DNA of 64,000 nt from Arthrobacter sp. SLBN-122 (lineage in GTDB: Bacteria > Actinomycetota > Actinomycetes > Actinomycetales > Micrococcaceae): contig NZ_VFMS01000001.1 of NCBI RefSeq assembly GCF_006715165.1, positions 1,674,001 through 1,738,000 on the forward strand, written 5' to 3'. Below are positions 14,043-19,778 of the stretch, in pieces (the stretch's first letter is position 1; each line of letters opens with the position of its first letter). The translations under genes were made by a program, and so were the position numbers. The notes beneath the pieces were generated by a model. That model ran no database searches. It was given only the letters and a program-made list of their open reading frames with translations, and was not told the origin of the DNA.

Positions 14043-17000
14043 TCAACGCAGGACGATGTCCACCGGGTTCGCTTCCGACCGCCAGGCACCTTCCTCACCC
14101 TGACGGGGCCGGATCACCGGTGCGGTGAGGACACCGGAGCGGTTGGTGCGGCGGTCACGGAGGATCTCGGTGACGGAGCCCAGGTGCCGGGACAGGTCGA
14201 TCACGTTTTCCGGCGCAGCGAGCAGCAGCTGGAAGCCGAATTCGTGCAGCGCCTTGATGCCGGCACCGGCGAACTCCTCTGAGGCAAGCACAAAGGCCTC
14301 GTCCATCATCACCGTGCCGTACGTCGTGAAGCCCTGCTCGGCGATGCCCAGCTGGTAGCTCAGGGCCGCAGCCATGATGAACGCGGTGAACCGCTGCCGC
14401 TCGCCGCCGGACATGGAGCCGGTGTCCGCGTGCATGAACACCTCGGTCTTTTTGGCGCCGCCCTTCTTTTTTTCGCCAGCCGGGGCGGCGACTTCCCGGT
14501 GCTCCTTGCACTGGATGAACAGGTGGCCCCGGACGTCCAGCACTTCCGCACGCCACCGCCGGTCTTCGGGCGCCTGCGATCCAAGCCTCTTGACCAGGGT
14601 TTCCAGGGACTTGTAGCGGGCGGTGAGCTCGGCGTCGTCGTTGTCCGGCCCCTCCCCCTTGGTTGCGTCCGTCCTGCCGGGCCGCATGTGGCGCGCCTTC
14701 AAAGCGTTCTGGATGGCGTCCTTGAACTGCTTTGCGGTGGGCGGCAGCGTCTGCTTGATGTCCAGTTCCAAGTAGCTGCCTTCGTGGAAGTTCACCTGGG
14801 AGAGGATGCCGTTGAGGGGCAGGATGCGGCTGGTGATGGAGCGGCGCTCCTCGTCCAGCAGGTGCAGCAGGGTGCTGAAGGATTCGTGGGTGCGCTGGTT
14901 GAAGAACAGCCGGAACTCCGCCTCCTGGGCCGGCAGGCCGTCATTCACGATGGCGTGGTAGCGGGCCTCGAATTCGCTGGCCGCGCCGATGCTGGTGCCG
15001 TGGTCCGCCGAGATGGCGCTGCCCCACTCCCGCACGAAGCCTTCGAAGATGCGGGTGAGCCGCTCCGCCGTGGCCTGCCCCCGGGATTCAGCGCCGTGCA
15101 GTTCGCCCAGCAGGGCGGTCCGGACCCGGTTGGCCAGGTTGTCCAGCTCGTGCATCTCGGTCACGTCGCCGAACTCCGCAAAGTACGGCTCCAGCGCCGT
15201 CACGGTGGCGTCCGACGGCGGTGCCTGGGCCAGGCGGTCACGCGCGGCTTCCAGCAGCGAATCCGCAGCTGTGAGCTGCCGGTCCAGTGCCTTGTATTCG
15301 CTTTGCAGGACCGCGGCGGACTCGGTGCTGGACTGGTGCTTTTGCCGGACCTCCTCGATGGTGGCCCGCAGCGGCTCCAGGTCTGCCTGCGCGGCGAGGG
15401 CGTCCTTGAGCCGCTGCTCGATCCGGGTCAGCTCGTCCGCCGCCACGGCAGCAGACACCTGTTCCCAGGGTCGGTCGTCTTCCGCAATCCGCCCCAGCGC
15501 GTCAAGCTGGCGGCTCATGCCCTGGTGTGAATCCTCGCGGCTTTGCGCCAGTTCCGCGGCCTTGACCACTTCCTGCCGGAGGTCCTCCACCTGGCCGGCC
15601 ACGAGTTCCAGTTTGGCGGCATTGTCGAAGCCCAGGACGTAGTCCTGCCGGCTGGTAAACCGGTCGTCCTTCTCCACCGTGTGCCGGTTGCGCTTGACCA
15701 CGCCGCCCAGGCTCAGGCCCTTGTCCAGCGCTGCCAGCTCGTCGGGGTCCTCCACGCACTGATAGGCGAAGTCCAGGGCGATCCGCTCGCGGACCCATTC
15801 ACCGGCTTCGGCCGCCGCACCTGAGGCGAGGATATCCAGCTTGGTGAGCAGGTCGCCGTCGCGCACGTCCTCCAGGGCGAGCGCACCGCCGGCGAGCGGC
15901 TTGGAGACGTCCACCGCCCGCAGCGCGCCCCGGACGCTGTGGTCGTTGAGGTAACGGGTGACGGCGCCGAAGTGTTCACCGGGCACCAGCAGGGTGGTGG
16001 CCAGGCTGCGGAGCGCGCGTTCGGCGGCGGGGCGCCACCGTTCCTCGCCTTCGGCAAGGTCCATGAGTTCGCCTGCGAAGGGCATGCGGTCTTCCGGGAT
16101 GCCGGTTGCGGCGGCGATGGCGGCGCGGTTTTCAATGCTCGACGGCGGCAGCAGGGACTTGCGCGTCTTCAACGAGACGAGCTCCTGCTCGGCAGCCGCC
16201 AGCTCCCGTTTGCGGCCGGCGTGGGCGTCGAAGGCCTCGAACCGCAGCTCCTGCAGGGCCTGCGAATCATCCTTCAGCTCGGCCGACCGTGCCGCCGCCT
16301 GCTCGTGGGCCTGCTCCCAGCCGGCGGCGCTCCACTCAAGCTGCAGCCCGGCGTCGGCCAGTGCCTGCTGGGCAGCCTCCTCAACCTGCCGGCGCAGCTT
16401 GAGGCCAACGCGGGCGTTCTCCAGCGACTGCTCAATCGCCGAAATCGCGTTGCCGCCCTGGTTGTTGTAGTCGGTTTCCAGCTGCCGCAGTTCCTTGGCC
16501 AGGTTGTCGCGGACGGCACGCTCGGCCCCGAGTTCCTTGGCCTTCGCCTGCGCCAGCTCACGGAAACGGGCCAGCGTCTTTTGGTGGACCGTAACGGCGA
16601 GCTGCTGCCGGTACGCCTCGAACTCCTCGCCAACGAGCTCCCGGAGCCGGTTGGCGTCAAGCAGGGACTGCGCATACTCGCGGTTCAGTCCCGGCACCGG
16701 CGCCAACTGGTCGCGCTGCTGCCGGACGTCCTCCAGCCGCTGGCGGATGGACATCAGGTTGCTGAATTCCTCCACCACGTCATCGGCGGCGGCGAGAGTT
16801 GCCGGAGCGTCCAGCACCTGGTCCCGGAAGAAGGTGTTGACGCTGCCGCCCAGCCCCTTGCCGGCCTGGATCACGCGCAGCAGGGGCAGGGCCTGGTCCG
16901 AGCTGATCCCCAGCAGCCGGCGGAAGCGTTCGGCGAAGGCCTTGTGCACGTCGAAGACCTGGGCGTGCGGGAAAATGGCCTCAAGCGCGCCTCTGGTGAA

Positions 17001-18328: not shown

Positions 18329-19778
18329 CTGAATCCTTTGCGAGCGTAACCACGGGCAGGTAGGCCCTGCGGGTGGAGCCGTCGATTTGTTCGAAGTCCA
18401 GGCCATCCCAGGCGCCGCGGTCGAAGTCGGCCCCGGCGTGTAGGGCCTCCGACAGGAGCGCGCGGATGGTGTTGATGTGCTGCTCTTCCGGCGGCAGCTG
18501 CTGCCAAGCGTCGGCAAGGGTGGCAGCCCCTGCCATGGCGGACCGGACCACGTCCGGCCTGGCTTTGCCGGTCCTCGGCGAGCGCACCCGGTCCGAGTCG
18601 GTGAAGGCGATGGGATCGGCCAGCCGGGGTGGCGCCGCGAACTCGTCCGGGTCAAAGAGCTTCACCATGGACAGCGACTCGAACCCGGCGTTGTACAGGA
18701 CGGGGCCGGGAACCAGTCCGGGGCGTTCGCGCTCGTAGGGAAGGGAACGGATGGCCTGCTCAGCCTCGCGCAGGACCTGCCGCAGCCGGACCGACTGCCG
18801 GAAGTCGTCGCTCTGGACGTAGGTGTTGAGGCTCTCGCTGAGCTTGCCGTAAATGCGCTGGATCTGGCTGTGCTGCTGGCGGAGCTCGGCCACCAGGTTC
18901 TTGAGCGTCTCCCGGTCGTCCGGCGAGAGATCGTCCGCGAACTGGCGGCTCAGGACCTCCCCGATGGCCGACCGGAACCTCACCTGCTGCTGCGGGTCCT
19001 CCAGGAAGGCGGTAAAGGACCGGAACGTCCTGCCCTCGGGGCTTTGGCGGAGCCGCTTGTCCGCTTCCAGGACCTGGGCCATGGTGGCGCCCTTGGTCAG
19101 CGACTCCTCGATGATCTGGTTGCGCAGCCCGCCCACCAGTTCCTCGATCCGGTCACGCATCTTCTTATAGTCGGCGGGGAGGCTGGCGGCCAGGTCCAGG
19201 ATGTTCCCGGCGGCCTCCACGGCTTCGTCGTCATCGAGCAGGCCGTCGAACCCACCCGTGCTGATGTCCTGGATCAGCTGCTGCCGCTCTTCGATTTCCT
19301 CTTCGAGGGCTTCGAGCCGGGCGGTCTGGTCCGGGTTGGTCTCGTTGGCGAGCTTTTCCACGTCCCCCAGCAGCGTGCCCAGCCGTGAACCGTTCAGCGT
19401 GGACCGCTCGCTGGAGAGGCTGTCCAGGAAAGCGAGCACACGCGCCGCAGGCTCCGTGGCCTCGTAGACAATCCGGCCTGACTGGTTCCGCCGGGTCAGG
19501 AACTGCCGCCGGGTCCACTCGTCACCAAAGGCCTTTCCGTTGGCTCCTCCTCCCAGCCCGGGATCCTGGCGCCGGAGCTCCTCAAGGAAGGAGTCGACGT
19601 CGGCATGGAATTCCTCGAGCGGAACCTGCGGGCGGGTACGGGTAAAGGAAGCCTGGAGCACGGCAATCACCCAGGGCGCCGAACGCGTCAGGGCCCACGC
19701 GGGTCCCTTGGTGAGGAGTTCGAGGTCCCGGAGCCGGGCGCTGATGGCGTCAGCGGATGACCTGGCGGAGCGGGGCAC
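18321..19778 (-). CDS. jetA: Wadjet JetA / MksF-type kleisin (DUF3375)
   Basis: 485 aa from a GTG at 19778 with an AAGGAGAG ribosome-binding site about 7 bases upstream. It matches the DUF3375 plan: N-terminal winged helix (L-L-T-K-G-P-A-W-A-L-T, residues 21-70), a long helical middle with coiled-coil potential (E-A-L-E-E-E-I-E-E-R-Q-Q-L, about 180-200; second helix about 275-340), and a C-terminal winged helix. It is the kleisin that bridges the SMC heads. First gene of jetA-jetB-jetC, all overlapping, so made in fixed ratio. The 257-bp upstream gap shows no clear operator apart from a small CTACC-TGCC-GGTAG hairpin. Confidence 0.88.
   Translation of the reverse strand: MPRSARSSADAISARLRDLELLTKGPAWALTRSAPWVIAVLQASFTRTRPQVPLEEFHADVDSFLEELRRQDPGLGGGANGKAFGDEWTRRQFLTRRNQSGRIVYEATEPAARVLAFLDSLSSERSTLNGSRLGTLLGDVEKLANETNPDQTARLEALEEEIEERQQLIQDISTGGFDGLLDDDEAVEAAGNILDLAASLPADYKKMRDRIEELVGGLRNQIIEESLTKGATMAQVLEADKRLRQSPEGRTFRSFTAFLEDPQQQVRFRSAIGEVLSRQFADDLSPDDRETLKNLVAELRQQHSQIQRIYGKLSESLNTYVQSDDFRQSVRLRQVLREAEQAIRSLPYERERPGLVPGPVLYNAGFESLSMVKLFDPDEFAAPPRLADPIAFTDSDRVRSPRTGKARPDVVRSAMAGAATLADAWQQLPPEEQHINTIRALLSEALHAGADFDRGAWDGLDFEQIDGSTRRAYLPVVTLAKDSDD

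What the first reader, a model, noticed from the sequence alone, without database searches (positions are those of the whole stretch)
14043..19778. Complete JetA-JetB-JetC (Wadjet/MksBEF) SMC operon with no JetD nuclease beside it
Three overlapping genes encode the DUF3375 kleisin, DUF4194 subunit and a MukB-like SMC ATPase with intact Walker A, signature and Walker B. Wadjet defence normally has a fourth gene, JetD (TOPRIM nuclease), directly after jetC. Here jetC is followed by 185 non-coding bases and an unrelated lipoprotein; no JetD-like frame exists anywhere in the window. Either the nuclease is supplied in trans, has been lost, or this is a nuclease-free condensin as known for MksBEF, perhaps with a new effector. 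The small two-helix membrane protein (20036) and the lipoprotein (13180) are the only close candidates for new partners.
Basis: partly seen in the sequence, partly recalled or inferred. Interest (0 to 1): 0.8.

Follow-up and report, generated by a model that had tools for sequence, protein, structure and literature searches.

The report
Nuclease-free Wadjet-like operon, genus-wide core
A DNA-looping machine built from the same three parts as a bacterial anti-plasmid weapon, but without the cutting part, sits at this spot in almost every sampled genome of the genus and often where no cutter was found at all, so it looks like a defence system turned housekeeper rather than a broken one.

Summary
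JetA (18321-19778), JetB (17513-18328) and JetC (14043-17516), minus strand, form an intact overlapping operon. No JetD lies beside it.

The same chromosome carries a second, complete and distant JetABCD operon 1.39 Mb away (JetC 29% identical), which holds the only JetD found in the genome.

Window-type JetA occurs in 90 of 91 sampled genus genomes. None of the 90 has a JetD match within 12 kb, and 54 have none anywhere, 14 of those being single-contig genomes. Nuclease supply in trans therefore cannot be the general explanation, and loss in this strain alone is excluded.

The same D-less operon, as one clade, was read in nine genera of the family. The genes are under strong purifying selection (omega 0.08-0.11), and no fourth gene is shared by most loci. 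On a tree of 97 loci the D state changes at least 11 times, and JetD tracks JetABC, which suggests repeated loss.

Best reading: a vertically kept, nuclease-free MksBEF-type SMC complex beside Smc. Its role was not tested. D-less Wadjet-group members are already in print, and one Paenarthrobacter genome was listed with the same two-locus pattern, so this is a new member of a known kind, useful for testing how Wadjet systems become condensins.

The parts
18321..19778 (-). jetA / mksF-like kleisin (DUF3375), 485 aa
   Evidence: PF11855 298 bits; PADLOC JetA 872 bits
17513..18328 (-). jetB / mksE-like KITE subunit (DUF4194), 271 aa; N-terminal LFPGDTG motif
   Evidence: PF13835 101 bits; PADLOC JetB 518 bits; start; motif
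14043..17516 (-). jetC / mksB-like SMC ATPase, 1157 aa
   Evidence: AAA_29 and SbcC_Walker_B; PADLOC JetC 1155 bits; 29% identical to the second JetC of the genome; matches solved JetC 8as8 at E 1e-60
17349..17375 (-). Walker A of JetC (GNSGVGKST)
   Evidence: read from the translation; aligned
14388..14411 (-). ABC signature of JetC (SGGERQRF)
   Evidence: read from the sequence; aligned
14292..14309 (-). Walker B of JetC (MMDEAF)
   Evidence: read from the sequence; aligned
13858..14042 (.). 185-base gap after jetC where jetD would stand; no terminator-like or promoter-like site by consensus scan
   Evidence: 77 of 80 genus loci; omega 0.27; not among neighbours shared by five or more loci of nine genera

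Best explanation
This is a nuclease-free Mks/Wadjet-type SMC complex. JetC dimers, JetA kleisin and JetB KITE subunits would bind DNA and extrude loops with ATP as other JetABC/MukBEF complexes do, but without a JetD to cut DNA at the end of extrusion. It descends from a JetABCD system by loss of jetD on the stem of a Micrococcaceae clade. It is kept by vertical descent as a third SMC-type complex beside Smc and, in some strains, a true JetABCD. Its most likely work is organising or segregating the chromosome or large replicons, as proposed for Pseudomonas MksBEF. Shown here: intact genes and motifs, conservation, absence of JetD, purifying selection, clade structure. Inferred: loop extrusion, direction of the JetD change, the chromosomal role.
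For: Window-type JetA (at least 84% identical) in 90 of 91 genus genomes, 0 of 90 with JetD_C within 12 kb, 54 with no JetD_C anywhere, 14 of these single-contig. By contrast 47 of 56 other JetA loci of the same search have JetD_C within 12 kb. Median omega: jetA 0.078, jetB 0.105, jetC 0.091 over 80 loci, like the neighbouring acyl-CoA dehydrogenase 0.090 over 75. No internal stop in jetA or jetC alignments of the 80 loci; jetB stays open to at least 246 aa in 80 of 80. D-less clade of 19 loci from nine genera, SH-aLRT 100, 15 rows 100/100 in the careful tree. No fourth gene shared by most loci. Smc is also present, 918 bits. JetD and JetABC distances agree (Mantel r 0.907, 0 of 2000 permutations as high; 26 of 42 bipartitions shared), which fits co-inheritance and loss. 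A review calls P. aeruginosa MksBEF a likely product of loss of JetD with a role in chromosome organisation (PMC10586767, passages).
Against: No function was measured. In C. glutamicum the related MksBEFG has no detectable chromosome-folding role (PMC7083940, passages), so a Mks complex need not organise chromosomes. The JetB N-terminal LFxGDTG motif is kept in 19 of 19 D-less clade loci, which could mean that a partner still docks there. The trees are unrooted; loss rather than gain rests on congruence and on JetD being general in Wadjet, and 16 of 42 bipartitions are not shared. Two genus genomes, G029 and G052, have jetA in split frames. A few of the 90 rows lie so near a contig end that a jetD could be cut off (G027 and G050 by their coordinates).
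Confidence: 0.6

Rival explanations
1. Nuclease-free defence: JetABC still acts on plasmids or phage DNA, by compaction, sequestration or blocking of replication rather than cleavage, as Smc5/6 silences viral DNA.
For: The subunits are Wadjet-family by profile. The related MksBEFG of C. glutamicum acts on plasmids and not on chromosome folding (PMC7083940, passages). Many actinobacterial lineages keep D-less JetABC.
Against: Near-universal, syntenic presence in the genus (90 of 91) is unlike the patchy true JetABCD (30 of 91 genus genomes have a distant JetA with JetD_C within 12 kb). The neighbours are by eye metabolic genes, not defence genes.
Confidence: 0.22
2. The complex works with a nuclease or other effector encoded elsewhere that is not JetD, for example the RecB-family nuclease/helicase found upstream in some relatives.
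For: A RecB-family nuclease/helicase lies upstream on the same strand in 7 of 19 clade loci, in one more on extension (L210), and 151 bases upstream on a 754-kb replicon (L206). It is found near 0 of 47 +D loci in the flanks held and 0 of 4 +D controls with 20 kb upstream. The JetB N-terminal motif is kept.
Against: Not within about 20 kb upstream in the sampled loci of genera g43, g55, g59, g67 or in G000 itself, nor in the flanks held for the 80 genus loci. It therefore looks like inherited gene order in one subclade.
Confidence: 0.1
3. JetD of the second operon serves both complexes in trans.
For: This genome does hold one intact JetD.
Against: 54 of 90 genus genomes with the D-less operon have no JetD_C match. 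JetC proteins of the two operons are 29% identical. JetD tracks its own JetABC.
Confidence: 0.04
4. A decaying remnant of a Wadjet locus that lost its effector.
For: JetD is missing; G029 and G052 show split jetA frames.
Against: Omega 0.08-0.11; three ATPase motifs in 79 of 80 genus loci, the other (L088) being cut by the contig end; no internal stops in jetA or jetC alignments; retention across nine genera.
Confidence: 0.02

Closest known systems
Wadjet type I / MksBEFG (JetABCD, EptABCD)
   Same: JetA, JetB and JetC families, gene order, overlapping genes, ATPase motifs; the best PADLOC models for all three are JetA1, JetB1 and JetC1
   Different: No JetD at the locus; core and syntenic in the genus instead of patchy; its own clade, JetC 29% and JetA 31% identical to the true JetABCD of the same chromosome
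MksBEF of Pseudomonas aeruginosa
   Same: Three-subunit Muk-like SMC complex without MksG (PMC10586767, passages); the window's cell also has Smc
   Different: The JetB-like subunit scores 101 bits to DUF4194 and only 26.3 to Pfam MksE (cut-off 27); descent from the Pseudomonas complex was not tested
MukBEF of Escherichia coli
   Same: Wadjet-group SMC complex without nuclease (PMC7617805, passages)
   Different: Pfam MukB N-terminal scores only 14.3 bits against a cut-off of 23; Smc is retained here
JetABC of Paenarthrobacter lasiusi S21
   Same: Table 6 lists one Wadjet with JetA, JetB, JetC only and one type I with JetA1-JetD1 in the same genome (PMC11719660, passages): the same two-locus pattern
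   Different: The passages seen list it without comment on the missing JetD; its sequence was not compared here

Membership tests
Wadjet type I (JetABCD) | JetA kleisin, JetB KITE and JetC SMC encoded together | tested here: met
Wadjet type I (JetABCD) | JetD (DUF3322 + JetD_C) in the operon; PADLOC requires all four and reports three-gene cases as Wadjet 'other' (PMC9252829, passages) | tested here: not met
Wadjet type I (JetABCD) | cleaves small circular DNA / restricts plasmids | not testable with these tools
   needs a transformation or cleavage assay
MksBEF (nuclease-free Muk-like SMC) | three subunits with intact SMC ATPase and no MksG | tested here: met
MksBEF (nuclease-free Muk-like SMC) | subunits reach the Pfam MksE and MukB models | tested here: not met
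   MksE 26.3 of 27 bits, MukB 14.3 of 23 bits; the genome's own true JetB reaches MksE at 32.8, so this model does not separate the two kinds
MksBEF (nuclease-free Muk-like SMC) | acts on chromosome organisation or segregation | not testable with these tools
   needs deletion with and without smc, Hi-C, microscopy
Smc-ScpAB | TIGR02168 above its cut-off | tested here: not met
   JetC 26.4 bits against 567; the real Smc is at G000:C1:56518-60084, 918 bits

The most novel reading that the evidence does not exclude
Wadjet systems have been turned into core nuclease-free SMC complexes many times independently in Actinomycetes. The Micrococcaceae operon is a family-wide, deeply fixed example that lives beside Smc and beside an intact-looking JetABCD in the same cell, and in one other family (f11) jetA, jetB and jetC have even drifted apart from each other while being kept. 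This would make the proposed origin of MukBEF/MksBEF from an immune system a repeated, directly testable process.
Probability: 0.45. Interest if true: 0.68.

Novelty: new member of a known kind. Interest (0 to 1): 0.48.

Why it matters
Whether MukBEF/MksBEF chromosome organisers arose from plasmid-cutting Wadjet systems by losing the nuclease is an open proposal (PMC10586767, passages). Here one actinobacterium holds both states on one chromosome, and its relatives give many D-less lineages with D-bearing sisters. That allows a matched comparison: same host, same subunit family, with and without nuclease. It also warns that surveys counting Wadjet by jetABC genes alone will miscount: in this sample of 246 Actinomycetes, 29 of the 51 JetA loci counted had no JetD_C within 12 kb.

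Tried and rejected
JetD in trans: rejected as a general explanation. Divergent JetD or another fourth gene after jetC: a JetD profile at E 1e-3 found none in the D-less loci, and the longest same-strand and opposite-strand ORFs just after jetC differ from locus to locus by eye. The lipoprotein as partner: 24 of 80. The RecB-family nuclease/helicase: followed to about 20 kb upstream in sixteen clade loci and four +D controls; kept only as a lead. The JetB N-terminal motif as a marker of JetD docking: kept in D-less loci too (19 of 19 in the clade; a loose form in 27 of 45 +D loci). A review mentions an IFDR motif of JetB contacting JetD, but the solved E. coli JetB shows no LWxGDTG at the aligned place, so I could not equate the two. 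A regular-expression count of Walker B first failed in 13 of 52 D-less loci; the alignment shows DE at the place in 51 of 52, the exception being the short frame L186. Stop codons counted inside JetA hits look like natural stops read through at the end; that rests on six genus loci inspected, not on the rows themselves. In one search only 13 of 80 jetB alignments cover 95% of the query and two run past a stop; the frames are nevertheless open to 246-362 aa in 80 of 80, so the tail varies.

Rows dropped before counts: three extra fragments of G029 and G052; the second fragments of G491 and G503 and five weak rows (G639, G506, G620:C12, G536, G523). G491 is itself a split, 78%-complete case near a contig end, counted as D-less. 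In one search, 97 of 102 loci were used; L109, L129, L130, L132 and L140 lack a long enough JetC frame. In one search nine of 57 rows were left out (long branches and near-copies). Loci for the trees were chosen partly by D status, so counts on the trees are not frequencies. JetD absence in relatives rests on PF09983 for whole genomes and on my own profile or tblastn for the stretches fetched.
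Full report
OBSERVATION. The window is bases 1,674,001-1,738,000 of a single 4.47-Mb contig rated 100% complete. The three genes read as stated, on the minus strand: jetA 18321-19778, jetB 17513-18328, jetC 14043-17516. Profiles: JetA to DUF3375 at 298 bits and JetC to AAA_29 and SbcC_Walker_B, JetB to DUF4194 at 101 bits; PADLOC JetA and JetC at 872 and 1155 bits and JetB at 518. 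jetA and jetB overlap by 8 bases, jetB and jetC by 4. After jetC come 185 bases and a lipoprotein gene on the same strand.

A SECOND OPERON. The two JetD domains (PF09983, PF11795) each match this genome once, at 3.093 Mb. That place is a complete jetA-B-C-D operon, L005 4076-10780. Its JetC is 29% identical to the window's. The chromosome also encodes Smc, 918 bits; ScpA and ScpB were not searched. The cell thus has genes for three SMC-type ATPases of this kind, one with a nuclease in its operon.

NOT A LOCAL LOSS. A scan with JetC gave 146 relatives, of which the best 80 were kept; they are titled Arthrobacter, Pseudarthrobacter or Paenarthrobacter, one only Micrococcaceae (JetC 81-97% identical in the best segment). 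jetA-B-C stand together in these 80 loci; tblastn with the genome's own JetD at E 1e-5 found nothing in their flanks, which are up to 10 kb and shorter at contig ends. The acyl-CoA dehydrogenase is found in the flanks of 75 of 80, the siderophore binding protein in 64, the small membrane protein in 77 and the lipoprotein in 24. In a whole-genome sample, 90 of 91 genus genomes have window-type JetA (at least 84% identity); the exception, G026, is 68% complete. None of the 90 has JetD_C within 12 kb, though a few rows lie near contig ends; 54 have no JetD_C match anywhere, among them 14 single-contig genomes (one of these, G052, is rated 79% complete). 36 of 91 genus genomes have some JetD_C match, fragments included. 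Of 56 other, distant JetA loci in the same 149 genomes, 47 have JetD_C within 12 kb. So JetD in trans cannot be the general explanation.

FAMILY-WIDE. In 295 genomes of the family, 168 have a JetA match and 71 any JetD_C match (the list of JetA places is capped). I fetched 20 lower-scoring loci that looked D-less and 20 D-bearing ones (chosen with the D result in view). 0 of 20 and 20 of 20 had a JetD frame. In the tree of concatenated JetA-B-C (57 of 62 loci) the window operon falls in a clade of 19 loci from nine genera, all 19 D-less, SH-aLRT 100, on a long stem; in a slower tree of 48 rows it is 100/100 with 15 rows. Two other family loci, L091 and L106, are D-less but fall elsewhere.

CLASS-WIDE. 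In 246 Actinomycetes genomes I counted 51 JetA loci: 22 with JetD_C within 12 kb and 29 without; 22 of 45 genomes with a counted JetA had no JetD_C anywhere. I fetched 25 of the 29 for a first reading. Each has jetA, jetB and jetC frames and no JetD frame; in L186 jetC is split into two frames. On a tree of 97 loci (52 D-less, 45 with D) the D state changes at least 11 times, 10 forced by branches with SH-aLRT of 95 or more (quick LG+G4 tree). In the careful tree of 48 rows it changes at least 5 times, 4 forced by starred branches, and 0% of 200 bootstrap trees put the D-less rows on one side of a branch. JetD and JetABC distances agree (Mantel r 0.907; 0 of 2000 permutations as high), and 26 of 42 bipartitions are shared. 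This fits JetD being old in the group and lost repeatedly; gain cannot be excluded because the trees are unrooted. Several rows, among them L131, are long and insecurely placed.

SELECTION AND MOTIFS. Median omega over 80 pairs with the window: jetA 0.078, jetB 0.105, jetC 0.091. Acyl-CoA dehydrogenase next door: 0.090 (75). Siderophore binding protein: 0.166 (64). Small membrane protein: 0.267 (76 usable of 77). Walker A, signature and Walker B are matched in 79 of 80 genus JetC proteins; the other, L088, is cut by the contig end. In the 52 D-less loci of the wide tree Walker A is aligned in 52, the signature in 51 and Walker B in 51; the exception is the short frame L186. The JetB motif LFxGDTG is kept in 19 of 19 clade loci; a loose form is found in 27 of 45 D-bearing loci, and it is lost in the four f11 loci. 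Its role is not known from these data.

NO FOURTH GENE. Clustering the ORFs of 70 aa or more in the flanks of the 19 clade loci (about 5 kb before and 7 kb after), no family outside jetA-B-C and the antisense shadows inside them occurs in more than 7 loci. Two families reach 7. One, by eye an ArsR-type regulator, lies about 5 kb downstream, mostly on the other strand. The other is a RecB-family nuclease/helicase upstream on the same strand. L206, a 754-kb Arthrobacter replicon, has the latter 151 bases before jetA. With 20 kb upstream it appears in L210 as well, but not in the sampled loci of g43, g55, g59, g67 or in G000. I read it as inherited gene order in a subclade and keep it as a lead.

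MOBILITY. In 72,556 plasmid records JetA matches six, two of them Arthrobacter replicons of 1.35 Mb and 754 kb, both typed non-mobilizable; the phage collection gave one weak match of 29.7% identity.

MECHANISM. From the subunits I infer an SMC motor that holds and extrudes DNA with ATP; without JetD there is no known cutting step. In C. glutamicum the related MksBEFG acts on plasmids and not on chromosome folding (PMC7083940, passages); P. [quoted passage not shown] Near-universal, syntenic, conserved presence without nuclease favours the second role here. This last step is inference.

KNOWN OR NEW. PADLOC files three-gene cases under Wadjet 'other' (PMC9252829, passages). A 2025 paper states that several Wadjet-group members lack MksG/JetD and lists operons in a data file that I did not see (PMC7617805, passages). 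Paenarthrobacter lasiusi was listed with one JetABC and one JetABCD (PMC11719660, passages). A phrase search for lacking or losing JetD found only the review. In the listings of my searches and the passages read I saw no account of this family-wide D-less operon or of repeated loss in Actinomycetes; the library holds open-licence papers only. I therefore rate it a new member of a known kind.

Noticed in passing
L129, L130, L131, L132 and L149-L152 (genomes G100, G117, G148, G133; family f11): jetA, jetB and jetC are kept but lie apart, with other genes between, and there is no JetD_C match in these genomes; JetB has also lost its N-terminal motif.
   Followed up: partly
L095-L098, L102, L107, L108, L210, L206: A RecB-family nuclease/helicase gene lies upstream of D-less jetABC on the same strand in one subclade and on a 754-kb Arthrobacter replicon.
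   Followed up: partly
G018, G064, G065, G068, G078, G002:C12:91755: Short or interrupted JetD_C matches in genus genomes could be remnants of lost JetABCD systems.
   Followed up: no
L109, L128, L147 and L140: In some D-bearing operons the jetC frame is split (L109, L128, L147) or only 91 aa long (L140) while jetD gives a frame of 264 to 444 aa.
   Followed up: no
G029:C1:3639607-3641066 and G052:C1:3031633-3033076: Window-type jetA in split frames in two lower-quality assemblies; real disruption or assembly error not decided.
   Followed up: no
window 20036-20338: Small membrane protein divergent from jetA, in 77 of 80 genus loci, evolving faster than its neighbours (omega 0.27).
   Followed up: partly
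window 7065-12227; L129 16068-17915: A siderophore ABC transporter cluster (named by eye) flanks the window operon; a similar-looking ABC gene lies downstream of jetB in a different family. Shared ancestry of this order was not tested.
   Followed up: no
PMC10551460 (one passage): DUF3375, DUF4194 and AAA_29 appear together in a table of domains statistically tied to growth-rate class in non-tuberculous mycobacteria; whether these are D-less operons was not checked.
   Followed up: no
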